From positions 248,001 to 312,000 of the forward strand of contig NZ_AP024651.1 in the NCBI RefSeq assembly GCF_019977295.1: a stretch of 64,000 bases of DNA. Reading direction: 5' to 3'. Position numbers and translations under genes: made by a program. The DNA is from Arthrobacter sp. StoSoilB20. Its GTDB lineage: Bacteria > Actinomycetota > Actinomycetes > Actinomycetales > Micrococcaceae. This document shows, one piece after another, positions 47,201-59,261 of the stretch; the first letter of the stretch is position 1, and each line of letters begins with the position of its first letter. The notes under the pieces were generated by a model, which worked only from the letters and a program-made list of their open reading frames with translations, did no database searches and was not told the DNA's origin.

Positions 47201-48786
47201 CCACCATGGGAAATCGACACCGCACGCGCGAATACAGCAACCCCATCCTCAACGCCGACTGGCCGGACCCGGACGCCGTCCAGGTTGGGGGCACCTATTA
47301 CCTGATTGCCTCCAGCTTCAACCGGGTCCCTGGCCTGCCCGTTCTGCGCTCCACCAACCTGGTGGATTGGGAACACATCGGGCATGCCCTCGCGGAACTT
47401 CCACAAACAAGCCACTACTCCCTGGTGCGCCACGGAAGCGGCGTATGGGCTCCCGCACTCCGCTATCACGACGGGAAGTTCTGGATCTTCTACCCGGACC
47501 CGGACCATGGAATCTTCGTCCTGAGCGCGGACAAAGCCGAAGGGCCGTGGAGCGCGCCGCACCTTTTGTACGCAGGCCGTGGCCTGATAGATCCGTGCCC
47601 GCTGTGGGACGACGACGGGCAGGCGTACCTCGTGCACGGCTGGGCAAAAAGCCGCATCGGGGTGAAGAACCGGCTGACAGTCCACCGGATGAGCCCCGAC
47701 GCCACACGATTGCTGGACCACGGGACGCACGTCATCAACGGCGAAGACCTGCCCGGATTCACCACGCTGGAGGGCCCCAAGTTCTACAAGCGCGATGACT
47801 GGTACTGGATCTTCGCGCCCGCCGGCGGGGTCTCCACCGGGTGGCAGTCGGTGTTCCGTTCCCGCTCGCCGTTCGGGCCTTATCAGGAACGCCGGGTGCT
47901 GGAGCAGGGCGATTCGCCGGTGAACGGCCCCCACCAGGGCGCCTGGGTCACCACTCCCGAGGGCCAGGATTGGTTCCTGCACTTCCAGGACCGCGGAGCT
48001 TACGGCCGGGTTGTCCATCTCCAACCCATGGGTTGGGACGCGGACGGCTGGCCATGGATGGGCAAAACAGCGGACGACGGCGGACCGGGAACCCCGGTTT
48101 TGACCCACCCCTATCCGGCGGGTACTTCGCCCGAAGCCGTGGCACCTCCAGCCAGCGACAATTTCACCACTCCCGGACTGGGGCCGCAGTGGCACTGGCA
48201 GGCCAACCCCCGCAAGGAGTGGTTTTCCACCTGTGGAGGAGGGCACCTGGTCCTGCGTCCGCAGGCCAACGATCCCATCAACCTCAGGGAGCTCCCCAAC
48301 GTCCTGGGCCAGATCCTCCCCGGCGTTCCGTCCACCTTCACTACCACCCTGGAACTTGACGATGTCCCGGCAGGCACCAGGGCCGGCGTCGTGGTTCTTG
48401 GCCAGCGGTACGCCTGGTTGGGGATCGTGCGGACGGGCGACGGGTACGTCCTGGGCAGCGGCACCGGCAGCGAAGGTCCCCACGAGCTTCCCGTCGGGCG
48501 GGCCGTGGACCTTCCCGGGCCACGGATCGAACTGCAGATCCGCACGGACCAGACCCCCCGGGCATCGTTTGCCTGGCGGGTGGGTCCCACGGATCCCTGG
48601 CAGATTCCGCTCTGGGATTTTGATGTGGTGGAGGGACGCTGGATCGGGGCTGAGCTGGGGATTTTCACGGCTTTACCGCTGGGTTCGCGCGAAAGTGGCA
48701 GTGTTATCGTTGGACCCGTGCGGGTCGAAACTTCGCCGGTCCGCCGGTCGACCGCTCCGCGCATTGCCGCCGCAGTTTCCCCATGA
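47197..48786 (+). CDS. Glycoside hydrolase family 43 (beta-xylosidase/arabinofuranosidase type)
   Basis: This 529-aa intracellular enzyme has NPILNADWPDPDAVQVGGTYYLIASSF (catalytic base Asp) and HGSGVWAPALRYHDGKFWIFYPDP. DPCPLWDDDGQAYLVHGWA, with the pKa-modulating Asp, and EGPKFYKRDDWYWIFAPAGG, with the acid Glu, follow. The C-terminal beta-sandwich (about 315-529) is DNFTTPGLGPQWHWQANPRKEW. It hydrolyses arabino- or xylo-oligosaccharides, here possibly the side chains of pectin. It overlaps both neighbours by four bases. Confidence 0.92.
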   Translation: MTTMGNRHRTREYSNPILNADWPDPDAVQVGGTYYLIASSFNRVPGLPVLRSTNLVDWEHIGHALAELPQTSHYSLVRHGSGVWAPALRYHDGKFWIFYPDPDHGIFVLSADKAEGPWSAPHLLYAGRGLIDPCPLWDDDGQAYLVHGWAKSRIGVKNRLTVHRMSPDATRLLDHGTHVINGEDLPGFTTLEGPKFYKRDDWYWIFAPAGGVSTGWQSVFRSRSPFGPYQERRVLEQGDSPVNGPHQGAWVTTPEGQDWFLHFQDRGAYGRVVHLQPMGWDADGWPWMGKTADDGGPGTPVLTHPYPAGTSPEAVAPPASDNFTTPGLGPQWHWQANPRKEWFSTCGGGHLVLRPQANDPINLRELPNVLGQILPGVPSTFTTTLELDDVPAGTRAGVVVLGQRYAWLGIVRTGDGYVLGSGTGSEGPHELPVGRAVDLPGPRIELQIRTDQTPRASFAWRVGPTDPWQIPLWDFDVVEGRWIGAELGIFTALPLGSRESGSVIVGPVRVETSPVRRSTAPRIAAAVSP

Positions 48787-49814
48787 GTTCAAGGACCGCC
48801 CCGTTGACCGCCACCCCACGCCCCAGGATTGCTGATGTGGCTGCGGCTGCGGGTGTCTCCGTACCCACTGTTTCCAAAGTGCTGAACGGCCGATCCCACG
48901 TCTCCGAAGCCACGCGCGCACGCGTCCGGAAGGCGTTGGAGGAGCTCGACTACACCAAGCGGAACACCGTCACGGAGCCCGGCCTGCTGCAACTTGTGGT
49001 GAACAACTTCGATTCCCCCTGGGTCCTGGAAACCATGGAAGGGGTGGAAGCGGCCGCTGCGCGGCTCGGATATACCGTGGCGTACACGCGGGCCGTGAAT
49101 GCCACAGTGGAGAACTGGCAGAAACTCCGGGAGCCCTCCAGCAACCGCCTTGACGGGGTGATGCTGCTGGCGCCGCGCCAAGGGTCGGCGCTGGTGGACC
49201 AAGCCCGGGCGTTGAACATTCCTGCCGTCGCCATCGATCCCGAGGGGTCGGAGGGGCTGCAGATTCCCAGCGTCAGCCCGGCGTCGTTCTCCGGAGCACT
49301 GGCAGCGGTGTCCCATCTGTTGAGCCTGGGCCATCAGCGCATCGGCATCATTACGGGCCGGGTACACAGCCCCGGCCATGGCCGCGCCCGCTACGCTGCC
49401 TACGCCGCCGCCTTGCACGAAGCCGGGCTGCCGGTATTGCCGGAGTTCGTGCGCGACGGCGACTTCAGCATCGAGTCCGGCCTTCGCCTGGGCGGCGAGC
49501 TCCTTGACCTTCCCGAGCGGCCCACCGCGATCTTCACGGGCAGCGACCTGCAGGCGCTGGGCGTCATGAACGCTGCAGCACAGCGGTCCTTGCGCATTCC
49601 GGCAGACCTCAGTGTTGTGGGCTTTGACGACATCGCCCAAGCGGCGCTGACTTCACCACCCCTGACCACGGTCCGGCAGCCCCTGGCCCAATTGGCGTCG
49701 ATGGCCGTGGGCATTCTGGCGGACCAGATCGAGCAGCCGGACCTTGGTTCCTCAGCAGCCCTTGAGGTGGCCACGGAGCTGGTAGTTCGCGCCAGCACCG
49801 CCCCGCCTAACTAG
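48783..49814 (+). CDS. LacI-family regulator of the pectin locus
   Basis: This 343-aa LacI protein has HTH RIADVAAAAGVSVPTVSKVLNG, hinge YTKRNTV and effector domain ending in VVGFDDIAQAALTSPPLTTVRQPL. Translation is coupled to GH43 through an ATGA overlap. It most likely binds the GAAACTTTC palindromes upstream. Its stop overlaps that of the convergent ThDP gene (CTAG). Confidence 0.92.
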   Translation: MSSRTAPLTATPRPRIADVAAAAGVSVPTVSKVLNGRSHVSEATRARVRKALEELDYTKRNTVTEPGLLQLVVNNFDSPWVLETMEGVEAAAARLGYTVAYTRAVNATVENWQKLREPSSNRLDGVMLLAPRQGSALVDQARALNIPAVAIDPEGSEGLQIPSVSPASFSGALAAVSHLLSLGHQRIGIITGRVHSPGHGRARYAAYAAALHEAGLPVLPEFVRDGDFSIESGLRLGGELLDLPERPTAIFTGSDLQALGVMNAAAQRSLRIPADLSVVGFDDIAQAALTSPPLTTVRQPLAQLASMAVGILADQIEQPDLGSSAALEVATELVVRASTAPPN

Positions 49815-51487
49815 TGGCCCTGGAACGCCTCCGCCAGCCACCACGATCCGCCGTCCGAGGCGATTTTCGCATCGATCACCAGCGGCCGGTCCTGTGTCCC
49901 GGCTTGGTAGGCCGCGATCCAGGGTCGGATGGCTTCCAGGTCTGCCACGGTCCGGACGGTCACGCCTTCGGCCCCGAATCCGCGGGCAATCGCGGCGATG
50001 TCCGTTTCCGGGAACACGACGCTGGCAAGCTCGTCCTCGGTGTGCTCCGGCGCGAAATGGTGGACTTCGGCACCGTAGGCGGCGTCGTTGTACACGATGC
50101 AGACCAGGGGCAGTTTCAGGCGGGCGGCGGTTTCGAGTTCGCTGATGCCCATGAGGAAGCCACCGTCTCCGGCGCCCAGCACGGGCAGCCGGTGTGGTTG
50201 GGCCAGGGCCGCGCCGATCGCTGTGTAGAGGCCCAGCCCGATTGCCTGGAACGCTTGGGTGAAGCAGAACCCGAACTCGTCGGGCACGGCGAGGTATTGG
50301 CTGGGGTAGCCCATGAAGTTGCCCGAGTCCACGGCCACGATCCGCTCTGTGGGGAGCAGGGTGTCGAGTTCGCGGGTGAGGACGCGGGGATCGATGGCTG
50401 TTTCGGTGGACAGGTCCTCGGTGTCCACGTCCCGCCACCTGGAGCCCTGCTTGATGGCCAGGGCGGTGGCTTCAGTGCGGTACTTTTCGACGGGCTCGGA
50501 CTCCACGGAACGCAGGGCCTCCAACGCATCCACTGCGGTCAGGGCCGTGTCACCCAGGAGCCCGAGGGTGATGGGCCGGTTGGCGCCGAGCGCGGAATCT
50601 TCGACGTCGATCTGCACGACTTTGGTGCCGGTGGAGATCAGTCTCCCGTGCCGCATGGTCCACATGTTCAGCGCGCATCCCCAGCCCACAATCAGGTCCG
50701 CGCTGCTGATGAGCTCCGCGGTGGTGGGTGAGGAGAATCCGCCGGAGATGCCGAGGTTGTGGGAGTCGCCATTGAACAGGCCGCTGGCCACGGCCGAGGT
50801 TGCCACCAGCGCACCGGCGTGCCGGGCCAACTCCAGGATCTCTTCCCTTGCGCCCCTGCCGCCACGTCCGGCGACGAACACGGGCCGTTCCGCGGCGACG
50901 ATCAACTCCACCAGTTGCTGCACTCCGGCAGTATCCGGGCGGACCTTCAAGGGTTCAGGCACGACGACGGCACCCACCTCGTCCGCCGAACTGGCACCTT
51001 GGATATCCAACGGCAGGCTCAGGACCACCGTGCGGCGCTCGTTCACCGCCGTCCGGAAAGCCCTGACAGTGTCCGCAACAGCGCTTTCGGGGGAGTGGAT
51101 CCGCTCAGCCACGGCGCCGACGCTCCGGGCCAGGGCGTCCTGGTCGATCTTGAAGTTGGACCTGGTGGCTGCGGCCTGGGTATCGGCGGTGAGCACGATC
51201 ATCGGCGTCCGGCTTTTCGCTGCTTCCCCGATCCCGGTGATGGCGTTGCTTAGCCCGCAGCCCTGATGCGTGGTCACCACACCCACTTTGCTGGACATCC
51301 GGGAGTAAGCATCCGCCATGGTCGCCGCGCCGCCCTCGTGCCGGGCCGCGGTGAAAGGGATGCCTTCGGCCATGAGGGTGCCGGTGACATCGAAGTTGCC
51401 GCTGCCAACCACCCCGAAAACATGCCCGACGCCGAGCTTCGCCAGCGTCCTGCCCACCAGCGTGGAAACCCGTATTTGCCCGCTCAT
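49811..51487 (-). CDS. Thiamine diphosphate-dependent decarboxylase-like enzyme
   Basis: This 558-aa ThDP enzyme has FGVVGSGNFDVTGTLMAEG at the start, the cofactor-activating Glu in ARHEGGAA, the central dinucleotide-like domain, and the ThDP-binding motif GAGDGGFLMGISELETA...IVYNDAAYG. It resembles acetolactate synthase and benzoylformate decarboxylase. It overlaps the cyclase gene by ATGA, so the two act together. Decarboxylation of isatinate (2-aminobenzoylformate) made by the cyclase is a good hypothesis. It is the last gene of the six-gene operon. Confidence 0.85.
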   Translation of the reverse strand: MSGQIRVSTLVGRTLAKLGVGHVFGVVGSGNFDVTGTLMAEGIPFTAARHEGGAATMADAYSRMSSKVGVVTTHQGCGLSNAITGIGEAAKSRTPMIVLTADTQAAATRSNFKIDQDALARSVGAVAERIHSPESAVADTVRAFRTAVNERRTVVLSLPLDIQGASSADEVGAVVVPEPLKVRPDTAGVQQLVELIVAAERPVFVAGRGGRGAREEILELARHAGALVATSAVASGLFNGDSHNLGISGGFSSPTTAELISSADLIVGWGCALNMWTMRHGRLISTGTKVVQIDVEDSALGANRPITLGLLGDTALTAVDALEALRSVESEPVEKYRTEATALAIKQGSRWRDVDTEDLSTETAIDPRVLTRELDTLLPTERIVAVDSGNFMGYPSQYLAVPDEFGFCFTQAFQAIGLGLYTAIGAALAQPHRLPVLGAGDGGFLMGISELETAARLKLPLVCIVYNDAAYGAEVHHFAPEHTEDELASVVFPETDIAAIARGFGAEGVTVRTVADLEAIRPWIAAYQAGTQDRPLVIDAKIASDGGSWWLAEAFQGH

Positions 51488-52260
51488 GCTTTTTCAACCA
51501 GCGCGTACACGCGGCTGGGGCTTCCCGTGCCGCCCACGATCGGCAGCGGCGCTACCACCAGGGTGGCGCCGGTGACGGGGAGCCGGTCCACGTTCCGCAG
51601 CGAGGTCACGCCGTACTTGTCCGCTCCCAGGAGGAACGAATGCACGGGGAACATCGGATCCAACGAACCGGCCTGGCCGGCGTCGATCCCCACCGTTTCT
51701 ACACCGAAACCGCTGATCGAGGCGTTCCCGGCGAGCCACTTGGCGCCCGCGGCAGAGACCCCGGGAGTGTGGGGTCCGGCGTCGTCCGCGTTGACGAAAG
51801 CCGCCGGGTCCGTGCCGCGGGCAGCCCAACCGGTCCGGAAAATGATCCAGCAGTTCTCCGGGAAAGAGCCGTGTTCCTCCTGCCACTGCTCAAAATGTTC
51901 CGGTTCCAGCAGGAAATCCGGGTCCGCGGCAACCTCGGCGGTCTTATCGATCACCGCAACCGGACCCATCAGGCGGTGCGGTTCGATCTGGTCCACTGAC
52001 TTGCCGTCCTTGCCGGTGATCCAGTGCACCGGCGCGTCCAGGTGCGTCCCGGCGTGTTCGCCCACGGTGACGTCGTTCCACGCCCAAGCCGGGCCGGCGT
52101 CGTCGAAATTACTGACCGGCGAGACCGACAAACCCACCGTGTTCGCGAACGGCTGCGGCAGGTTCAGGATGGGGGTTTCAGAACTCAGGGGCGTGGTGAG
52201 ATCGATGATTTCCACCGAACCACTCGAAAGGGCTGCAGTGAGCCCGGCCAGAACAGACAT
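51484..52260 (-). CDS. Cyclase-family metal hydrolase (isatin hydrolase / kynurenine formamidase-like)
   Basis: This 258-aa enzyme has the metal-binding motif HAGTHLDAPVH at residues 69-79 (HxGTHxDxPxH), a WIIFRTGWAARG strand, and VETVGIDAGQAGSLDPMFPVHSFLLG. The family includes isatin hydrolase, kynurenine formamidase and IifC-like proteins of indole catabolism. AGGAGA precedes the ATG. Its position in an operon with StyA-type oxygenases and an SDR makes isatin or a related indole-derived lactam the likely substrate. It overlaps the ThDP gene by four bases. Confidence 0.85.
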   Translation of the reverse strand: MSVLAGLTAALSSGSVEIIDLTTPLSSETPILNLPQPFANTVGLSVSPVSNFDDAGPAWAWNDVTVGEHAGTHLDAPVHWITGKDGKSVDQIEPHRLMGPVAVIDKTAEVAADPDFLLEPEHFEQWQEEHGSFPENCWIIFRTGWAARGTDPAAFVNADDAGPHTPGVSAAGAKWLAGNASISGFGVETVGIDAGQAGSLDPMFPVHSFLLGADKYGVTSLRNVDRLPVTGATLVVAPLPIVGGTGSPSRVYALVEKA

Positions 52261-52267
52261 TGTTCTC

Positions 52268-53920
52268 CTATCGCTTGCTTGGTTTAAGTGCTGCTTGAAG
52301 GCGGGAAAGCCGTGAAGGCGGTGCGGTCAGTTTTTGCGCCACCAGGTGTCCGGAACCGCCGGAAAGTCCAGGGCCGGGATGCGTCGATGCGCCGATGTGC
52401 CAAAGACCGTCGACGGCGGTGCGGTGCCCGGCTGCCGTGGGGAACGGCCGCCACAGAAGGTTCTGGAAGAGCTCAGCGGAACCTCCGTAGGGGTCGCCGT
52501 TCACGGCGTTGGGATTCGCGTCCGCCAGGTCCGTGGGAGCGATGATGTCCGAGGCCAGGACAGTCGCCCTGGTTCCCGGTGCGAACTTCTCCAGGCGTGC
52601 CAGGACCCGTTCCAAGTAGCCCTGTTTCAACTCCTCAGTCCAGCCCTCCGCAACGGTCAACTGGCCCGCCGCATCGCCTACCGGCGTGAACGGGACTTCC
52701 TGCAGTTGCAGCCACAACGTGGCCTTGCCTTCGGGAGCCCGCGATGGATCCAGCACGTATTGCTGCCCCACCACCACCGTGGGTTCGCTGGGAAGCAGGC
52801 CTGCTTCAGCCTGGGCGCACGCAATTCCCGTGCTGTCAGAGCCGCTGCTGATGTGCACCAGCGGGACGGTGTTGAGCCGGGGATCAAGCCACTCCACAGG
52901 CTTATCCAGAGCCAGGTGGATCTGCATGGCGCCCCGGCCGTTCTGGTAGCGGGCTGCTGCGTCGGCAGTGCCGGCCGGTGGCTGGCGAAGGAGCCGGGTG
53001 TACAGGGCCTGGGGGGAAACGTTGGCGAGCACCGTGCCTGCGGAAACCACTCCTTGCGACGTCCGGACGCCGGTGACGGAGCCATCTTTCGTGGAGCCGC
53101 TGCCGGTCCCCACCAGGATCTCCTCCGCCTCAGCGCCCAGCATGATCCGGACGCCGTTGTCGCGCAGCAACGACTCAAACGCCGCGACGAACCTGGAGGC
53201 CCCGCCCTTCACGATCGGCATCCCGAAGCTGTGCATGCTCATGGCCATCACCGGCAACATGACACCGCCGGTTGCATGGTCCGGGCCCAGCCCTGCGTGC
53301 AGGAGCCAGGGTGACCACAGCTGGTCCGCTTCCCACCCGTCAAAGCGGCTGCGGGTGTAGTTCCTGCCGCTCATCACCGAGTCCCTGACGAATGTTTCCG
53401 TCCCCGCAAAACGCCCCCGGCGTACAGCACCAAAGGCAATCTTCGCGACCTCCCCGAAGGACCTGAGTTCCGCCCCGAACGCCCCGAACACCGTGCCGGC
53501 ATTCCGTCCAAGGTCGTCCAGCATTGCCCCATAGGCAGCCTGGTCGCCAGGGGGGGTGAACGCGGCAGCCGTCTCACCCGGATCCCGCTGCGCAATCACC
53601 ACACGATGCTCCCCGGTCACCGGATCCGCGGCAACGCTGGCTGTCACAGCTTCGGTGGTGTTGCAGTACTCCAAGCCCCTGGCATGCAGTTCCTTTCCCA
53701 GCGCCGCGTAGGCACCGCCGGACACGAACAGAGGGTGCCAGGATGAGAAGGAATCATGGATGAAGCCGGGCAGCGTCCGCTCCGCCGAATGAATGAAACC
53801 ACCCAGCCGGTCCGAGCGTTCGATGATGCACACACGCTTACCGGCAAGCGCCAGCTCCGCTGCCGCAACCAGGGAATTGATGCCCGAACCTATGATCGCG
53901 ACGTCAACTGAATCGTCCAT
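52268..53920 (-). CDS. Phytoene-desaturase-like FAD-dependent oxidoreductase
   Basis: This 550-aa flavoprotein has an N-terminal FAD-binding motif VAIIGSGINSLVAAAELALAG and ERSDRLGG, a long substrate domain, and a C-terminal GLWHIGASTHPGPGLSGGSGHLVAQ, the typical amine oxidase/desaturase FAD site. ATG at 53920 (AAAGG upstream) is preferred over 53935. The reaction is unknown; its place between StyA2B and the cyclase suggests it oxidises an intermediate of the pathway. No known indole pathway step is assigned to such an enzyme, to my knowledge. Confidence 0.82.
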   Translation of the reverse strand: MDDSVDVAIIGSGINSLVAAAELALAGKRVCIIERSDRLGGFIHSAERTLPGFIHDSFSSWHPLFVSGGAYAALGKELHARGLEYCNTTEAVTASVAADPVTGEHRVVIAQRDPGETAAAFTPPGDQAAYGAMLDDLGRNAGTVFGAFGAELRSFGEVAKIAFGAVRRGRFAGTETFVRDSVMSGRNYTRSRFDGWEADQLWSPWLLHAGLGPDHATGGVMLPVMAMSMHSFGMPIVKGGASRFVAAFESLLRDNGVRIMLGAEAEEILVGTGSGSTKDGSVTGVRTSQGVVSAGTVLANVSPQALYTRLLRQPPAGTADAAARYQNGRGAMQIHLALDKPVEWLDPRLNTVPLVHISSGSDSTGIACAQAEAGLLPSEPTVVVGQQYVLDPSRAPEGKATLWLQLQEVPFTPVGDAAGQLTVAEGWTEELKQGYLERVLARLEKFAPGTRATVLASDIIAPTDLADANPNAVNGDPYGGSAELFQNLLWRPFPTAAGHRTAVDGLWHIGASTHPGPGLSGGSGHLVAQKLTAPPSRLSRLQAALKPSKR

Positions 53921-53943
53921 GTCCGCACCTTTCAAGGGGGTTG

Positions 53944-55728
53944 CTAGAAGTCCGGGTGGCTGGCTGTGGCGTGGTACTTACCGGCATGGAACACCAGGGG
54001 AGCGCCGCCGTCGTAGTCGTATTTCTCCACTTCACCCACGTAGATGACGTGGTCGCCGGCGTCGTACCTGGACACCGTGCGGCACTGGAAGGTGGCCACC
54101 GCGCCGTCCAGCAGCGGAACCCCTGCGATGCCCTCGGTGGTCCCGGCGCCGGCGAATTTGTCGGTGGCCGGCGTGGCGAACTGGCGGGACAGGACGTGCT
54201 GGTCGCTGGCCAGGATGTTGATGGCAAAGTGGGTGGCGTTTTCGAAGTCGCCCAGGCTGGGTGAGCGTTTGCCTGGGCACCACAGCACCAACGGGGGTTC
54301 CATGGAGACTGACGTGAACGAGTTCGCGGTCATGCCCACCTTTCGGCCGTCTGCAGCAACAGTGGTCACCACGGTAACGCCTGTGGCGAACTGGCCCAAC
54401 GCACCCCTGAAGTCCCGGACGTCGAAAACCGCGGTGTCTTCCTCCTTGCGGGCCTGCATGAAGTCGGCAGCGGCGGTGGGATCGAACCACCAGGGGTAGG
54501 ACGTGCGGGGATCATCAAATCCTGCCGCGATGCCTGCTGCCAAAGCCGGGTGTTCCGCAGCTTCGCTGAGCAGCGTCTTCTGGTGGTCCCGGCGCGGCTT
54601 GAGGAGATCATTGGTCCACTCCACGGCCCACTGGCCCCAGCCTCGCCAGAACTCATCGAACGTCCGCTCCATCCAGTTGCGGTCGAACGGCTGCTGGCCC
54701 CGGCGAATGATCGCGTCGAGGTAATACTTTGCAGCCAGCGTCGCATTGTTTGAGCCTTGGCCGGTGAGGGGATCGTTGAGGACCACAGCGTCGCCGAGCC
54801 CGAACACCAGCTTTCCGTTCCCGAGCTCCCCGACGGCGGACCTCACCGTTGGCGTGATGCGCCCCAGAAGCGTGGCGCCGCTATCGGTCAGTTCGGCTGT
54901 TGCGAAGTTATCGGCCTCGTGCGGGAAGTGCTCGCGCAGGATTTCCAGCGAACGGTCCAGTTGTTCCTGAGGGGTTTCGATGCCGCTCCAGCGGTCCATG
55001 GGACCACCAACCACGCCTTCGAACACCATCATGCGGCACGGTCCGGAAACGGTCAGGCCGGGGAAGGTAAAGAACTCGCCGACGCCGGGGGCCATGGACA
55101 TGCGGATGGCATCGGCGCTGTTGGAGGTGCTGTTGGAGGTGCTGTTGGGGACGCTGTCCGGTGACTCATTGCCGGCGACCGGCACACCGGCATCGGCCGT
55201 GACGTAATTGAGCGCGAGCACCCGTTGCGGCCGGTCGAAGGGCGATTTCGCCTTGTCGCGCGGGAAGATCTGGCCGATCTCACCCTTGCCAGTGCTGACA
55301 ATGACCAGCTCATAATCGCGGGCCAGTTCTTCGAGCATGCGGGGGGTGACCTTCTCAATCCGGAAGTCACCCCCGGCGGCCACGAACGTCTCGATCCAGA
55401 GGGCGCTCTTGATGCGTTGATCAATTGAGCGGGCGGGGCCATCCAAGGGGGCTTCCCACTCTATGGGCTCGTCCGCATCCACACGGAGGCGGATGGAAGT
55501 GATCTCAGGGACGGAGCCGGAGTCATAGAACCCGTTAAGGGAGGTGCCCAGCTGGGCTTCGGCATCCAGGGCGGTGGAAAACATGCACTGGCTGGACATG
55601 ACTTTGCCGGTGCGGATCTGGGCTGCGGAACGGTCGGACAAAAGGGTTACCGCATAGCCGTCCCGTTGCAGTCCGAGCGCCAGCTGGGCGCCCGATTCCC
55701 CTGCCCCAATGATTGCTATTTTTCGCAT
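53944..55728 (-). CDS. styA2B: Self-sufficient flavoprotein monooxygenase StyA2B (oxygenase-reductase fusion)
   Basis: This 594-aa fusion has a group E flavin monooxygenase (1-420) with the GxGxxG motif in IAIIGAGESGAQLALGLQRDG, MSSQCMFSTAL and GLGDAVVLNDPLTGQGSNNA. It is joined to a flavin reductase (about 435-594) with FRGALGQFATGVTVVTT, GMTANSFTSVSMEPPLVLW and HFAINILASDQHVLSRQFA. The fusion is known as StyA2B from Rhodococcus opacus and related actinobacteria, where it works with StyA1 in epoxidation of styrene-like substrates and indole. A 12-bp repeat inserts NSTSNSTSNS into the oxygenase (about residues 193-204). AAAGGA precedes the ATG. Confidence 0.92.
   Translation of the reverse strand: MRKIAIIGAGESGAQLALGLQRDGYAVTLLSDRSAAQIRTGKVMSSQCMFSTALDAEAQLGTSLNGFYDSGSVPEITSIRLRVDADEPIEWEAPLDGPARSIDQRIKSALWIETFVAAGGDFRIEKVTPRMLEELARDYELVIVSTGKGEIGQIFPRDKAKSPFDRPQRVLALNYVTADAGVPVAGNESPDSVPNSTSNSTSNSADAIRMSMAPGVGEFFTFPGLTVSGPCRMMVFEGVVGGPMDRWSGIETPQEQLDRSLEILREHFPHEADNFATAELTDSGATLLGRITPTVRSAVGELGNGKLVFGLGDAVVLNDPLTGQGSNNATLAAKYYLDAIIRRGQQPFDRNWMERTFDEFWRGWGQWAVEWTNDLLKPRRDHQKTLLSEAAEHPALAAGIAAGFDDPRTSYPWWFDPTAAADFMQARKEEDTAVFDVRDFRGALGQFATGVTVVTTVAADGRKVGMTANSFTSVSMEPPLVLWCPGKRSPSLGDFENATHFAINILASDQHVLSRQFATPATDKFAGAGTTEGIAGVPLLDGAVATFQCRTVSRYDAGDHVIYVGEVEKYDYDGGAPLVFHAGKYHATASHPDF
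55117..55150. repeat. 12-bp tandem repeat inside styA2B
   Basis: GCTGTTGGAGGT occurs twice in full and a third time as GCTGTTGGGG. On the coding strand it encodes the repeated Asn-Ser-Thr-Ser of StyA2B. It is a multiple of three, so copy-number change keeps the frame. Confidence 0.8.
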
Positions 55729-55755
55729 GGTTGAGTCCTTTTTAGCAGGGTTGTG

Positions 55756-56997
55756 CTAAGAAACCTTGGCGGCGGAAAGGCCTGCAAGGTAGTCAGCGGC
55801 TTTGTCCGGGTACATGAACCAGTCCTGGAATTCGGGCGGGTGGTTGAAGCCGTTGGCGAAGCGGTGCGCGATGTCCGGCTCGTTGTTCGCGGCGCCAAGG
55901 AGTTCAAGGACGTGGGGCGGCGGCGGAGCCAGGAGGGCATTTGTCCAGTGTGCAACGTGCTGGGCGTAATCCCAATAGCGCTCGAACGTGGCCTGCATGA
56001 AACCGGCATCGAACGTCCCGCTTCCGTGCTGGAGGATGCTTTCCAGGTACGACGCCGCGCACTTGCTGGCGTTGTTGGAGCCTTGCCCGGTGATGGGATC
56101 GTTCAACACCACGACGTCGGCCAGGCCCAGTACCTGCCGTCCGCTGGGCAGCGTAGCAATGGGGTGGCGGACCGTGGGGGCAAAGCGTCCCTGAAGGATG
56201 CCATTGGGGTCGGTCAATTCCACGTCCGTGGCCCGTTCGGCTTCCCACGGCAGGAAGGTGTTGAGGATGTCTTTGGAGTTCTGCAGGTGTTCCTCGGGGG
56301 AGAGGCCCTTCCACGTATCCATGGGTCCGCCTGGAACTCCTTCGAACACCATGATCTCGCAGGGACCCGTGGTGGTCAGGGCCGGGAAGACGAAGTATTC
56401 GCCCACGCCGGGAATGAGGTTGAACGAGACCGCCGAGTACTCTTCGCGGGGTTTCAGGCCCTTGACGTAGGTCAATGCCAAGGCGCGCTGCGGGGCGTCG
56501 TAGGTGCTGCGTTCGGCGTCGCGGGTGAAGAGTTGCGCGATTTCGCCCTTGCCGGCCGCCACAATCACCAGATCCGAGTTCTGCGTGTACTTCTCCAGCT
56601 CGGCTACTCCGGCGTCCTCGAACACCAGTTCGCCGCCCCGTGCCGTGAACTCTTCCATGAATTTAGGGAACTTCACGCGCTGGTCGATGGACTTGGCGTG
56701 GTTGTCCAGGCGGGAAGCCCAGCTGATGGCCTTCTCGCCCGGCAACTCCGGGTGGGGGATGGTGAATGAAATGCCGTCAACGGTGGGCGCGTCCGGCCAG
56801 AAATCCAAGCCCAAGGCCCGCTCGTGCTCCAGGGCGTTGTGGAAAATACATTGGCTGGAGGCTACTTTGCCATCATGGATTTCCTCAGGCGTGCGGTTGG
56901 AGATGGTGGTGACCTGGAACCCGGCGTCGAGGAGGCCGATGCCGAGCTGCAGTCCTGACTGGCCCGCTCCGACGATGGTGATGTGGCGTTGCGTCAT
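55756..56997 (-). CDS. styA1: Group E flavoprotein monooxygenase StyA1-like
   Basis: This 413-aa monooxygenase has ITIVGAGQSGLQLGIGLLDAG, VASSQCIFHNALEHERALGLDFW, GVGEYFVFPALTTTGPCEI and LGLADVVVLNDPITGQGSNNA. It is the single-domain oxygenase companion of StyA2B. As it lacks its own reductase, it should use FADH2 from the StyA2B reductase part or another reductase. ATG at 56997 has AAAAGGG. It lies 27 bases before styA2B and 64 bases after the SDR gene in the same transcript. Confidence 0.9.
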   Translation of the reverse strand: MTQRHITIVGAGQSGLQLGIGLLDAGFQVTTISNRTPEEIHDGKVASSQCIFHNALEHERALGLDFWPDAPTVDGISFTIPHPELPGEKAISWASRLDNHAKSIDQRVKFPKFMEEFTARGGELVFEDAGVAELEKYTQNSDLVIVAAGKGEIAQLFTRDAERSTYDAPQRALALTYVKGLKPREEYSAVSFNLIPGVGEYFVFPALTTTGPCEIMVFEGVPGGPMDTWKGLSPEEHLQNSKDILNTFLPWEAERATDVELTDPNGILQGRFAPTVRHPIATLPSGRQVLGLADVVVLNDPITGQGSNNASKCAASYLESILQHGSGTFDAGFMQATFERYWDYAQHVAHWTNALLAPPPPHVLELLGAANNEPDIAHRFANGFNHPPEFQDWFMYPDKAADYLAGLSAAKVS

Positions 56998-57061
56998 GGT
57001 GTTGCCCTTTTCTCTTGGTCTGTGCGGTCTCTGTTGCTGTTGTGCTTGGCTGTCGCTGTTC

Positions 57062-57850
57062 TCAGTTGGCGGCAAGGAGGGGGATGGTTTCCTCGGCGCG
57101 TTCCGGCCCCAGGGCGGAGTAGCCGCCGTCGACGGCCCAATCCGCGCCGGTCACGAAACTGGCCTGGTCGCCGGCGAGGAACGCGACGACGTCGCCCACC
57201 TCATGCGGGCGGCCAACGCGCTTGAGTGCATGGAACGGGGCGGCCACGGCGTCGGTCTTTTCGAGGTTCCCGTTGCTCAGGGAGTCCATGATGTTGCTCC
57301 ACACCCAACCGGGGCTGACCGAGTTGACCCGAATGCCGTCCGGTGCGAAGTCCACGGCCATGCTGCGGGTGACCTGGACCAGGGCTGCTTTGCTGGCCGG
57401 GTAGAGCCAGCGACCGGTTTGGGCCACTGAGCTGGAGATCGAGGTGAAGTTGATGATGGCACCGTGTCCGGATGCCTTGAGGTAGGGGCGGGCTGCGTTG
57501 CTTGCCACTACCGCGCTGACAAGGTTGACGTTGAGTGCTTCGAGCCAGTCTGCCCGGCCTGATGCTCCGCCGTCGTCCTTGTATGTGCAGGCCAGATTGA
57601 CCAGGATGTCCAGGCTGCCGTGCCGGGCCGCGGTCCCGCTGACCAGCCGGTCCACGGCTGCATCGTCGGTGATATCTGTGTGGGAGTAGTGGACTCCTTC
57701 GCCCAACCCGGCGGCGAGGGAGGCGCCGTCGGGGTCTATATCCGCAACCACCACCACAGCTCCAGCGTCCCGCAAGGCGGTGACCACGCCCTGGCCCACC
57801 TTGGTGGCCCCACCGGTAACTATCGCTGTCCTGCCCTTGAGTGCTGACAT
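57062..57850 (-). CDS. SDR dehydrogenase of the aromatic cluster (IifB-like)
   Basis: This 262-aa classical SDR has VTGGATKVGQGVVTAL (modified TGxxxGxG: TKVG), NLACTYKDDGG, the catalytic Ser in INFTSISSSVAQ and YPASKAAL (Tyr, Lys), ending SFVTGADWAVDGGYS. It is the first structural gene of the operon. In indole-degrading clusters an SDR oxidises the dihydroxylated indole intermediate, so this role is likely but inferred. ATG at 57850 is used, with AAAGGG upstream; a longer reading exists but starts in the control region. Confidence 0.87.
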   Translation of the reverse strand: MSALKGRTAIVTGGATKVGQGVVTALRDAGAVVVVADIDPDGASLAAGLGEGVHYSHTDITDDAAVDRLVSGTAARHGSLDILVNLACTYKDDGGASGRADWLEALNVNLVSAVVASNAARPYLKASGHGAIINFTSISSSVAQTGRWLYPASKAALVQVTRSMAVDFAPDGIRVNSVSPGWVWSNIMDSLSNGNLEKTDAVAAPFHALKRVGRPHEVGDVVAFLAGDQASFVTGADWAVDGGYSALGPERAEETIPLLAAN

Positions 57851-57888
57851 GTGCCAAACCCTTTCCTGCGACGATGATGTTACGGAAA

Positions 57889-57904
57889 TATGACGTGCGT
57901 CATA
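57889..57904. promoter_or_regulatory. TATGACG-CGTCATA palindrome before the SDR gene
   Basis: A 16-bp inverted repeat with arms TATGACG and CGTCATA and a 2-base centre lies about 40 bp before the SDR start and overlaps the duplicated element. Only one arm is present at the second element. Confidence 0.5.
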
Positions 57905-57974
57905 GTTGTCCTGCAAGTGACTCTAGGGAGGCGCGGTCTTTCGGAATATCCATTTGGTGCGGGGATTATCCGAA
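57896..57974 (-). promoter_or_regulatory. Duplicated 79-bp control element, copy A (SDR/styA operon)
   Basis: This stretch matches 58167-58245 at about 62 of 79 bases, counted by eye. Conserved blocks include TGCGTCATA, GACTCTAG, GGAATATCC, GCGGGG and ATCCGAA. It ends 45 bases before the SDR ATG, equal to the geometry at the second copy (42 bases). It probably holds an AraC-type operator and promoter. Confidence 0.65.
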
Positions 57975-58124
57975 TTACGCAGGGTCCTCCTCTTCTTCGT
58001 GCCAGCCAACCCAGGCCGCGGAAGTGAGGTGGGTTTCCCTGGCCCGAAGCTCCGCCGCCCAGAGTTCGAAGTGACTCTGATCCCATTCGTCCCGCCGGTC
58101 ATGCACCAGCTTGATGTTCTTCAC
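57975..58124 (-). CDS. 49-aa small ORF at head of aromatic operon
   Basis: GTG at 58124 is preceded by GAGGTGAGG, an excellent ribosome binding site, and opens a 49-aa frame: MKNIKLVHDRRDEWDQSHFE, then helical LWAAELRARETHLTS, W-rich AAWVGWHEEEED and stop. Composition is like a genuine small soluble protein. It lies between two copies of the 79-bp control element, one of which would be its promoter. Function is unknown; it might be a regulatory or oxygenase-associated subunit. Confidence 0.7.
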   Translation of the reverse strand: MKNIKLVHDRRDEWDQSHFELWAAELRARETHLTSAAWVGWHEEEEDPA

Positions 58125-58166
58125 TTGTCCTCACCTCGCTTCCGTAACTGTTGCAGTTCTGTGAGC

Positions 58167-58245
58167 TGCGTCATACTGGTCCTGAAAGCGACTCTAGAGA
58201 GTCGCTGGACTCCGGAATATCCGCTCGGCGCGGGGACCATCCGAA
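58167..58245 (-). promoter_or_regulatory. Duplicated 79-bp control element, copy B (small ORF and araC-like gene)
   Basis: This is the second copy of the repeat, ending 42 bases before the 49-aa ORF and 48 bp from the start of the divergent AraC gene. It has GACTCTAGAGAGTC, a longer palindrome than in copy A, and the shared GGAATATCC block. Conservation of distance to both minus-strand starts suggests a duplicated operator-promoter unit. The 57851-58292 gap holds no other gene. Confidence 0.65.
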
Positions 58246-58292
58246 AAGCGAAAATGACCCGTGCAGCAGAAAACCGGTGAAGCAGGTGGCGG

Positions 58293-59261
58293 ATGGTGAG
58301 GATTCTTCCTCGTGACGTACTGCGGGGGCGGCCAACCATGGCCACCACCGACGTAGACCAAGCGCACGCCAAAATTGCTGAGCTGTTCTGCAGCCACGAG
58401 CTGGCCCCGAGGACCCGCCAGGCCTCCGTGGACATGAAGCTGCGCTCCCTTCACCGCGGTGATGTGGGAATCGAGTTCCTGGACTACGGCGCGGACGTTC
58501 GGATTGAGCCGGAGGGCCTCCAGGATTTCCACCTGGTGCAGATCCCCTTGGCCGGGCATGCGTCCATGCAAGTGGGTGCCAGCGCCGTGGACTCAAATCC
58601 GGCCATGGCCACCGTTCCTCCGCTGGACAGGCCCTTCTCCATGAGCTGGGACAGCGGCAGTCCGCACATGATTGTGTATGTCAGACGCTCAGCACTGGAG
58701 CGGGTTGCCTGGCAGCTCAACGGCACGGCGCCGGGTGGACTGGGCTACGGCATGGACCTTTCAGGTGCGGCCGGCCGCGCATTCCTGAGGGCCGTCGTCG
58801 AACTTCATGAGGACATGATCAGCCAGCCGCAGTCCACGGCTCCCGCCTTTGTCCAGGGTTTATTGGCGGACAGCATGGTGTCGCGCCTGCTGATGGCGAT
58901 GGAGCCGGCCGTCGGGGAAGCCCGGGACGTGGATTCCGAGAGCCGCCTGGTCCGGGAATGTCGTGAACTGCTGGAAAAGCACGCTTTCGAAGAACTGACT
59001 GTCCCGGACATCGCTGAGTGCCTGGGTGTTTCGGTCCGCACGCTCCAAACCGCGCTGCGGGCGGAAACGGGAGCGACGCCGTCGGACATGCTCCGCAGTA
59101 TCCGCCTGGACCGGGCCCGGGAGATGCTGTTGGAGGCCAGTCCCCGTGAGCAAAGCGTGACGGCGGTTGCGGAGTTGTGCGGTTTCACGCACCAAGGGCG
59201 CTTCTCTGCGCTGTACCTTAAGGCCTTCGGCGAGCTGCCCAGCGAGAGCCTGCGCCGCTAG
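58293..59261 (+). CDS. AraC-family regulator of the aromatic operon
   Basis: This 322-aa protein has an N-terminal cupin-like sensor domain (about 30-185) and a C-terminal double HTH (about 215-320): LTVPDIAECLGVSVRTLQTALRAETGATPSDMLRSIRLDRAREML, AVAELCGFTHQGRFSALYLKAFGELPSE. It belongs to the AraC type common beside aromatic monooxygenases in actinobacteria. ATG at 58293 is taken, with a second ATG at 58338 possible. It is divergent to the operon and likely binds the duplicated 79-bp element. Confidence 0.9.
   Translation: MVRILPRDVLRGRPTMATTDVDQAHAKIAELFCSHELAPRTRQASVDMKLRSLHRGDVGIEFLDYGADVRIEPEGLQDFHLVQIPLAGHASMQVGASAVDSNPAMATVPPLDRPFSMSWDSGSPHMIVYVRRSALERVAWQLNGTAPGGLGYGMDLSGAAGRAFLRAVVELHEDMISQPQSTAPAFVQGLLADSMVSRLLMAMEPAVGEARDVDSESRLVRECRELLEKHAFEELTVPDIAECLGVSVRTLQTALRAETGATPSDMLRSIRLDRAREMLLEASPREQSVTAVAELCGFTHQGRFSALYLKAFGELPSESLRR

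What the first reader, a model, noticed from the sequence alone, without database searches (positions are those of the whole stretch)
49811..58292. Predicted indole/isatin-type degradation operon with StyA1/StyA2B, cyclase and ThDP enzyme
Six minus-strand genes with overlapping or close junctions encode an SDR, StyA1, StyA2B, an FAD oxidoreductase, a cyclase-family hydrolase and a ThDP decarboxylase-like enzyme, divergent from an AraC regulator. StyA1/StyA2B-type enzymes oxidise indole and styrene. Cyclase-family members include isatin hydrolase and the IifC group of indole catabolism, and the SDR fits IifB. A route indole to dihydroxyindoline, isatin or hydroxyindolinone, isatinate, then decarboxylation by the ThDP enzyme to 2-aminobenzaldehyde is coherent, and the last two genes overlap by ATGA. 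The ThDP step and the phytoene-desaturase-like enzyme are not part of the iif pathway as I know it, and may be a new variant.
Basis: partly seen in the sequence, partly recalled or inferred. Interest (0 to 1): 0.78.

Follow-up and report, generated by a model that had tools for sequence, protein, structure and literature searches.

The report
Indole breakdown operon through isatin
A soil bacterium carries a six-gene set that most likely burns indole by way of isatin, using a vitamin-B1 enzyme for a step whose enzyme I could not find described, and part of the set recurs in distantly related bacteria.

Summary
The six minus-strand genes and the divergent AraC gene are there. They encode an SDR, an indole-monooxygenase pair (StyA1/StyA2B), a phytoene-desaturase-like FAD enzyme (FADox), an isatin-hydrolase-like cyclase (IH) and a ThDP enzyme. 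IH and ThDP lie in the cluster in 11 of 11 family-sample genomes with fused StyA2B and in 33 of 35 named loci. In a phylum sample, 19 of 28 IH genes adjoin this ThDP gene, 6 adjoin a split two-subunit ThDP decarboxylase-like pair, 3 neither; a Tsukamurella plasmid has indolepyruvate-oxidoreductase-like ThDP genes there. Different ThDP enzymes beside one cyclase imply that it makes an alpha-keto acid. Ten IH loci carry benzoate/anthranilate-type CoA-ligase genes, nine of them with a 2-aminobenzoyl-CoA-monooxygenase-like gene; locus L200 has these plus all seven cluster genes. Caveats: the cyclase misses one published isatin-hydrolase signature (GVTS, not GLQC/GLAS); nothing was measured; the ThDP product (2-aminobenzaldehyde or anthranilate) and the FADox step are inferred; no aldehyde dehydrogenase gene recurs nearby. 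I judge it a new variant of known indole catabolism.

The parts
58293..59261 (+). AraC/XylS-type regulator, divergent from the operon
   Evidence: AraC_binding_2 and HTH_18; nearest NCBIfam model AndR (anthranilate dioxygenase regulator), 134.7 bits against a cut-off of 350, so below it
58149..58245 (.). Direct repeat copy 2 (97 bp), candidate promoter/operator element
   Evidence: 74% identical to copy 1, spacing 271; a repeat pair (37 to 95 bp reported) with spacing 270-271 also in all 5 relatives put in (L057, L091, L094, L096, L099)
57975..58124 (-). Small ORF, 49 codons, GTG start behind a GAGGTGAGG ribosome-binding site, lying between the two repeats
   Evidence: homologue found by its MKNIK start in 12 of 34 named loci; over the 11 intact ones differences by codon position sum to 33/42/153; no Pfam match; 9 protein clusters, those with a named organism from Paenarthrobacter/Arthrobacter
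57878..57974 (.). Direct repeat copy 1 (97 bp), nearest the SDR gene
57062..57850 (-). Short-chain dehydrogenase (IifB-like role inferred: dihydrodiol to 3-hydroxyindolin-2-one)
   Evidence: nearest solved chain 8eh2, named only 'SDR family oxidoreductase'
55756..56997 (-). StyA1/IndA1, FAD-dependent indole monooxygenase
   Evidence: Smoa_sbd; best solved-structure hit 7z4x E 4.6e-182; fingerprint S and Q kept, Ile at the M50 position, V73 and I76 positions kept
53944..55728 (-). StyA2B/IndA2B, monooxygenase fused to a flavin reductase domain
   Evidence: Smoa_sbd plus Flavin_Reduct; S-x-Q-x-M kept
52268..53935 (-). FAD-dependent oxidoreductase, phytoene-desaturase/amine-oxidase fold (FADox); inferred dioxindole to isatin
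   Evidence: predicted model pLDDT 80.9, best fold match gamma-carotenoid desaturase 4rep
51484..52260 (-). Isatin-hydrolase-like cyclase (IH)
   Evidence: best solved-structure hits 5nmp, 4j0n, 5nnb, 5nna, all isatin hydrolases, E 1.5e-75 to 1.9e-69; HxGTHxDxPxH at 69, WxW at 59, GVTS instead of GLQC/GLAS
49811..51487 (-). ThDP-dependent enzyme, inferred isatinate (2-aminobenzoylformate) decarboxylase
   Evidence: three TPP domains; Glu51 and GDG-x23-YND; best fold match benzaldehyde lyase, which ranks behind BbmA and an ancestral acetolactate synthase by sequence; Ser29 aligns with position 28 of benzaldehyde lyase; overlaps IH by ATGA

Best explanation
An AraC-controlled indole catabolic operon that runs through isatin. 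StyA1, fed with FADH2 by StyA2B, epoxidises indole; the epoxide or dihydrodiol is oxidised by the SDR to 3-hydroxyindolin-2-one (dioxindole); the FAD enzyme oxidises that to isatin; the cyclase hydrolyses isatin to isatinate (2-aminobenzoylformate); the ThDP enzyme splits off the carboxyl group, giving 2-aminobenzaldehyde, or anthranilate if the step is oxidative. Anthranilate then enters a 2-aminobenzoyl-CoA pathway encoded elsewhere in this genome. Shown here: gene content, linkage, sequence motifs, presence of the CoA-pathway-like genes. Inferred: every reaction. The link of cyclase and ThDP enzyme is the firmest inference (about 0.85); the FADox step (about 0.6) and the ThDP product are the weakest.
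For: StyA1/StyA2B match indole monooxygenases (fingerprint from PMC13101512, passage). The cyclase's four best solved hits are isatin hydrolases; residues named as substrate-recognising in isatin hydrolase, Ile32 and Leu34 (PMC10470551, passage), align with Leu32 and Leu34 here. IH and ThDP lie in the cluster in 11 of 11 fused-StyA2B genomes of a 197-genome family sample and 33 of 35 named loci. Of 28 IH places in a 296-genome phylum sample (E at most 1.9e-74, next hit 1.9e-41), 19 adjoin this ThDP type, 6 a sulfopyruvate-decarboxylase-like alpha/beta pair, 3 neither. Tsukamurella L090 has indolepyruvate-oxidoreductase-like genes in that place. In L069 and L090 SDR, FADox and IH are kept while an FMO-family gene stands in for StyA1/StyA2B. 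CoA-ligase genes (51-72% to that of L071) accompany IH in L069, L072, L076, L077, L079, L080, L084, L090 and L200, as in L071 itself; a 2-aminobenzoyl-CoA-monooxygenase-like gene is in all of these but L072, and in L062. The own genome has both, adjacent. Ser29 and His74 of the ThDP enzyme are kept in 81 of 81 IH-linked rows, 61 of them at 86% identity or less, and differ in 9 of 15 unlinked rows.
Against: The cyclase lacks the GLQC/GLAS signature proposed for isatin hydrolases (GVTS), and the WxW motif is broken in several linked relatives: WKH in L060-L066 and L200, WRH in L068, WQH in L090, SYQ in L085. A cyclase-family member 25% identical to isatin hydrolase cleaves a C-C bond in dihydrophloroglucinol (PMC10470551, passages), so the family is not limited to isatin. 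No aldehyde dehydrogenase gene recurs: one ALDH query found only L085. The cyclase of Roseibium aggregatum L089 (which I recall as the new name of Labrenzia aggregata, source of proven enzymes) has no ThDP neighbour. FADox relatives occur without IH in 3 of 13 order-sample genomes. In 14 StyA loci outside the family, taken from 66 genomes with hits, no IH or FADox was found and only 25-28% ThDP-fold hits in two; L200 is an exception found later. A. terricola L109 lacks IH and ThDP nearby. Five unlinked ThDP rows also have Ser29 and His74. No expression or enzyme data.
Confidence: 0.74

Rival explanations
1. Aminomandelate order: the cyclase opens dioxindole to 2-aminomandelate, the FAD enzyme oxidises that to isatinate, and the ThDP enzyme decarboxylates it, like an ortho-amino mandelate pathway. 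Isatin is then not an intermediate.
For: Uses the same six proteins; the triad FADox-IH-ThDP without SDR in L202 fits both orders; the best fold match of the ThDP enzyme is benzaldehyde lyase.
Against: Solved near relatives of the cyclase are isatin hydrolases, and LaIHB is described as strictly specific (PMC6117287 passage). The FAD enzyme is of the desaturase/amine-oxidase fold; mandelate dehydrogenases are, as I recall, FMN enzymes of another fold.
Confidence: 0.12
2. The ThDP step is oxidative and yields anthranilate directly (electrons to FAD or O2, as in pyruvate oxidase) instead of 2-aminobenzaldehyde. This is a sub-variant of the best explanation.
For: No aldehyde dehydrogenase found with the searched clusters except L085; CoA ligases for an aromatic acid are repeatedly linked; the Tsukamurella variant uses an oxidoreductase-type ThDP enzyme.
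Against: Benzaldehyde lyase and 2-hydroxyacyl-CoA lyase rank ahead of pyruvate oxidase as fold matches, though not by much; a decarboxylase-like split enzyme fills the same place in 6 loci.
Confidence: 0.3
3. Ordinary iif-type indole degradation: dioxindole goes to anthranilate by a cofactor-independent oxygenase, and cyclase and ThDP genes are passengers.
For: Monooxygenase, SDR and AraC are shared with iif clusters (PMC4577076, passages; PMC6165268).
Against: None of the seven proteins matches a dienelactone-hydrolase family; cyclase and ThDP are kept across genera in the cluster.
Confidence: 0.05
4. Styrene or sulfide oxidation operon.
For: Relatives epoxidise styrene and sulfoxidise sulfides in vitro (PMC6017014, passages); Rue61a converts styrene cometabolically (PMC3534580, passages).
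Against: No styrene oxide isomerase or phenylacetaldehyde dehydrogenase family among the cluster proteins; Rue61a does not grow on styrene; the Rhodococcus pair is not styrene-induced.
Confidence: 0.03

Closest known systems
iif indole degradation cluster (Acinetobacter)
   Same: Group E indole monooxygenase, SDR, AraC-type regulator; expected end product anthranilate (PMC4577076 and PMC6165268, passages).
   Different: No dienelactone-hydrolase-like IifA; instead FADox, isatin-hydrolase-like cyclase and ThDP enzyme; reductase fused to a second monooxygenase.
StyA1/StyA2B (IndA1/IndA2B) of Rhodococcus opacus 1CP and Variovorax paradoxus EPS
   Same: Same two-protein monooxygenase architecture.
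   Different: Their neighbours were not examined here; the account of such clusters that I read (PMC6165268 section 10 part 1) names SDR and dienelactone hydrolase, and genes for anthranilate, indolepyruvate and others, not isatin hydrolase.
Isatin hydrolases LaIHA, LaIHB, RsIHA
   Same: 45-49% identical over the aligned columns; metal motif, WxW, Asp193 and His207 kept.
   Different: GVTS instead of GLQC/GLAS; tied to ThDP genes, which the Roseibium cyclase of L089 is not.
Dihydrophloroglucinol cyclohydrolase (cyclase family)
   Same: Same Mn-dependent family (PMC10470551, passages).
   Different: 25% identical to isatin hydrolase, with Trp/Tyr at the positions that are Leu32/Leu34 here; cleaves a C-C bond.
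Benzaldehyde lyase / benzoylformate decarboxylase
   Same: ThDP fold and best fold match; Ser at the position that is Ala28 in benzaldehyde lyase and Ser in 3iae.
   Different: About 26% identical; 149 bits against a cut-off of 493 for the NCBIfam benzoylformate decarboxylase model.
2-aminobenzoyl-CoA pathway
   Same: Downstream-type genes in the same genome and next to IH in the loci listed above.
   Different: Not part of this operon in the window's organism.

Membership tests
Group E indole monooxygenase (IMO) | Fingerprint S46-Q48-M50-V/I73-I76-A96 rather than SMO N46-V48-H50-Y73-H76-S96 | tested here: met
   A2B: S45-x-Q47-x-M49, other positions not placed. A1: S47-x-Q49-x-I51, with V and I at the 73/76 positions; one deviation (Ile for Met). 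A96 could not be placed with certainty (fingerprint quoted)
Group E indole monooxygenase (IMO) | Oxidises indole | not testable with these tools
   Needs enzyme assay
IndA1/IndA2B fusion type | C-terminal flavin reductase fused to the second monooxygenase, beside a separate A1 | tested here: met
   PF01613 at residues 445-588, E 8.3e-42
Isatin hydrolase | HxG[T/A]HxDxPxH metal motif | tested here: met
   HAGTHLDAPVH at residue 69
Isatin hydrolase | WXW/FXW pocket motif | tested here: met
   WAW at residue 59; broken in several relatives
Isatin hydrolase | GLQC or GLAS signature | tested here: not met
   GVTS at residues 217-220; hence called isatin-hydrolase-like, not filed as IHA or IHB
Isatin hydrolase | Hydrolyses isatin | not testable with these tools
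   Needs assay
iif indole pathway | Dienelactone-hydrolase-like IifA | tested here: not met
   No such family among the seven proteins; the rest of the genome was not searched for one
ThDP enzyme superfamily (ALS/benzaldehyde-lyase type) | Catalytic Glu and GDG-x(n)-N ThDP motif | tested here: met
   Glu51; GDG at 440-442 with YND at 466-468
Benzoylformate decarboxylase (NCBIfam PRK07092) | Curated score cut-off 493 bits | tested here: not met
   149.4 bits

The most novel reading that the evidence does not exclude
A dedicated isatin branch of indole catabolism exists in Actinomycetota and Deinococcota, in which isatin is a true intermediate and the isatinate step is done by a ThDP enzyme. At least three different kinds of ThDP enzyme (benzaldehyde-lyase-like single chain, split sulfopyruvate-decarboxylase-like pair, indolepyruvate-oxidoreductase-like pair) have been recruited for it, and the first oxygenase is also exchangeable (IndA1/IndA2B, an FMO, perhaps an LLM monooxygenase).
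Probability: 0.62. Interest if true: 0.76.

Novelty: new variant of a known kind. Interest (0 to 1): 0.7.

Why it matters
A 2018 review asks whether isatin takes part in indole degradation at all, since no iif gene handles it and it was proposed to be a dead end or artefact (PMC6221969, passages). An operon that joins an indole monooxygenase to an isatin-hydrolase-like gene and a ThDP gene gives a direct genetic test. It would also put an enzyme on the isatinate step, for which my searches of the held library turned up none (mostly listings seen, passages opened in a few).

Tried and rejected
Styrene operon reading: rejected for lack of styrene oxide isomerase and phenylacetaldehyde dehydrogenase families in the cluster and by literature. 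Search for an aldehyde dehydrogenase neighbour to finish the route: one ALDH query, found only in L085 (L194 and L197-L202 also none; L184-L193, L195 and L196 were not searched). Claim that all isatin-hydrolase-like genes pair with ThDP: rejected by L089, L175, L176, L177. Claim that FADox belongs only to this pathway: rejected by L197-L199. Claim that StyA loci in general carry IH: rejected by L155-L168, 14 of the 66 other genomes with hits. My gene calls in high-GC loci are home-made and rough; the counts rest on the tblastn maps. The ThDP model (pLDDT 74.8) has low-confidence stretches and was used only for the fold. Literature searches for an isatinate-decarboxylating enzyme turned up nothing.
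Full report
What is there. The window is C1:248001-312000 of a single-contig 4.78-Mb genome; close protein hits are Paenarthrobacter. Six minus-strand genes occupy 49811-57850 and an AraC-type gene reads away from them at 58293-59261. Pfam and NCBIfam give, in transcription order, an SDR, StyA1, StyA2B with a fused flavin reductase, a CrtO/CrtI-like FAD oxidoreductase (FADox), a cyclase (IH) and a three-domain ThDP enzyme. IH and ThDP overlap by ATGA.

First enzyme. StyA1's best solved-structure hit is 7z4x (E 4.6e-182), which I recall as the indole monooxygenase VpIndA1. The published fingerprint that separates indole from styrene monooxygenases (PMC13101512, passage) is met by StyA2B at S, Q and M, and by StyA1 at S, Q, V73 and I76 with Ile for Met50; I could not place A96. 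So the pair is of the indole type.

Cyclase. Its four best solved-structure hits are all isatin hydrolases, E 1.5e-75 to 1.9e-69. The metal motif and WxW are met; the GLQC/GLAS signature proposed by PMC6117287 (passages) is not: the protein has GVTS. The cyclases labelled ThDP-linked in that alignment read G-x-T-S, G-x-T-Q or GLAQ, never GLQC or GLAS; L086, with a cyclase and a ThDP gene about 4 kb apart, has GLQC. Several linked relatives also break WxW (WKH in L060-L066 and L200, WRH in L068, WQH in L090, SYQ in L085). A second reported pair of substrate residues, Ile32 and Leu34 of isatin hydrolase (PMC10470551, passage), is Leu32 and Leu34 here. The same paper describes a distant member of the family that cleaves dihydrophloroglucinol, so family alone does not fix the substrate. 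I call the protein isatin-hydrolase-like and a sister group, not a proven member.

Link of cyclase and ThDP enzyme. In a 197-genome family sample the fused StyA2B occurs in 11 genomes, and all 11 have IH and ThDP in the cluster (one has them on the far side of AraC, two have three genes between IH and ThDP; a twelfth genome, G007, has an unfused monooxygenase and neither). Among 35 named loci, 33 have both; A. terricola L109 and the short Sinomonas contig L116 do not. In a 296-genome phylum sample, 28 IH places in 27 genomes stand clear of the next hits (1.9e-74 against 1.9e-41). Of these, 19 lie beside a homologue of this ThDP gene (three of these are fragments), 6 lie beside two small genes instead (L169-L174) and 3 have neither in the stretch fetched (L175-L177). 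The two small genes match sulfopyruvate decarboxylase alpha and beta below cut-off, tested on L172 only. On a Tsukamurella plasmid the place is taken by genes matching indolepyruvate oxidoreductase alpha (below cut-off) and beta (above). Different ThDP enzymes beside the same kind of cyclase is the strongest argument that the cyclase product is an alpha-keto acid, as isatinate is. The Deinococcus records L083 and L084 carry the pair too.

Exchange at the front and the end. L069 (unnamed, same class) and L090 keep SDR (66-67%), FADox (55-57%) and IH (57-63%) but have an FMO-family gene in place of StyA1/StyA2B. CoA-ligase genes lie near IH in L069, L071, L072, L076, L077, L079 and L080, 7 of the 15 loci, and in L084, L090 and L200; against that of L071 the others are 51-72% identical. 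A 2-aminobenzoyl-CoA monooxygenase/reductase-like gene accompanies all but L072 and also lies in the Micrococcaceae locus L062. NCBIfam matches the ligases tested, the own genome's and L069's, to benzoate-CoA ligase below cut-off, and the own genome's monooxygenase to 'bifunctional salicylyl-CoA 5-hydroxylase/oxidoreductase' above cut-off; that they handle anthranilate is inferred from Arthrobacter Rue61a, where anthranilate-CoA ligase activity was measured (PMC3534580, passages). L200 holds ligase, monooxygenase, FADox, StyA2B, StyA1, SDR, AraC, IH and ThDP genes in about 18 kb. The window's own genome has both CoA-pathway genes side by side at 4629295-4633199.

ThDP enzyme. The best fold match is benzaldehyde lyase (model pLDDT 74.8); by sequence BbmA and an ancestral acetolactate synthase score higher, benzaldehyde lyase next. 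Ser29 aligns with position 28 of benzaldehyde lyase, Ala in the wild type and Ser in 3iae, the A28S mutant. I recall, without a call, that A28S brings benzoylformate decarboxylase activity and that benzoylformate decarboxylase has Ser there. Counting alignment rows over 350 residues, Ser29 and His74 are kept in 81 of 81 IH-linked rows (61 at 86% identity or less, about 42 distinct genes) and in 5 of 15 unlinked rows (L041, L053, L054, L087, L088); they differ in 9, all below 40% identity, and one (L044) was partial. Eleven shorter pieces were left out.

FADox. The fold is of the carotenoid-desaturase/amine-oxidase type. In an order sample 13 of 347 genomes have it at E of 1e-120 or less: nine have IH and ThDP in the cluster, three of one family do not, one contig is too short. 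L202 is a bare FADox-IH-ThDP triad and L201 adds an LLM monooxygenase. This fits a role directly before the cyclase, dioxindole to isatin, but is inference.

What speaks against. No aldehyde dehydrogenase recurs in the loci searched, so either a household enzyme acts or the ThDP step is oxidative. The cyclase misses one published signature. Of 66 other genomes with StyA hits in a class sample, the 14 whose surroundings I fetched have no IH or FADox and only 25-28% ThDP-fold hits in two. Nothing was measured.

Literature. A review lists the role of isatin in indole degradation as an open question (PMC6221969, passages). Seven searches of the held library returned nothing that, from the listings and the passages I opened, describes an isatinate-decarboxylating enzyme or an indole-monooxygenase/isatin-hydrolase cluster. 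The library lacks most subscription papers, including two I tried to open on the iif biochemistry and on the Rhodococcus StyA2B. No paper was read whole.

Regulatory leader. Between SDR and AraC lie two 97-bp direct repeats (74% identical, start to start 271 bp); a repeat pair with 270-271 bp spacing recurs in the five relatives tested. Between them lies a 49-codon ORF with a good ribosome-binding site, found by its MKNIK start in 12 of 34 named loci; in the 11 intact ones differences sum to 33/42/153 over codon positions, L111 (7/5/12, reading changed near the end) left out. The counts are not independent events. Two close relatives (L117, L125) lack it.

Noticed in passing
window 57975-58124 (-): Unlisted 49-codon ORF with ribosome-binding site and third-position-biased divergence; homologues found only as 9 clusters, those with a named organism from Paenarthrobacter/Arthrobacter; L102 and L109 have a shorter 28-32 codon relative.
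   Followed up: partly
window 57878-57974 and 58149-58245: Two 97-bp direct repeats 271 bp apart in the regulatory region, spacing kept in the five relatives tested; perhaps paired regulator sites or a duplicated promoter.
   Followed up: partly
L063 3779-6478; L066 13031-15700; L201 8117-9217: A luciferase-like flavin monooxygenase (with a flavin reductase and a second AraC gene in L063 and L066) sits in or beside the IH/ThDP cluster; its role is unknown.
   Followed up: no
L169-L174: Isatin-hydrolase-like genes beside a split ThDP decarboxylase pair that scores below the curated sulfopyruvate decarboxylase cut-offs (tested on L172): perhaps a new subfamily.
   Followed up: partly
L090 3934-7763: Indolepyruvate-oxidoreductase-like genes divergent from IH in Tsukamurella tyrosinosolvens; could make anthraniloyl-CoA directly.
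   Followed up: no
L197, L198, L199: FADox relatives (55-59%) without IH; L198 has small transporter-like genes beside it. Another role is likely.
   Followed up: no
window 49811-49814: The ThDP gene and the LacI-type gene (48783-49814, +) converge and overlap by four bases at their stops.
   Followed up: no
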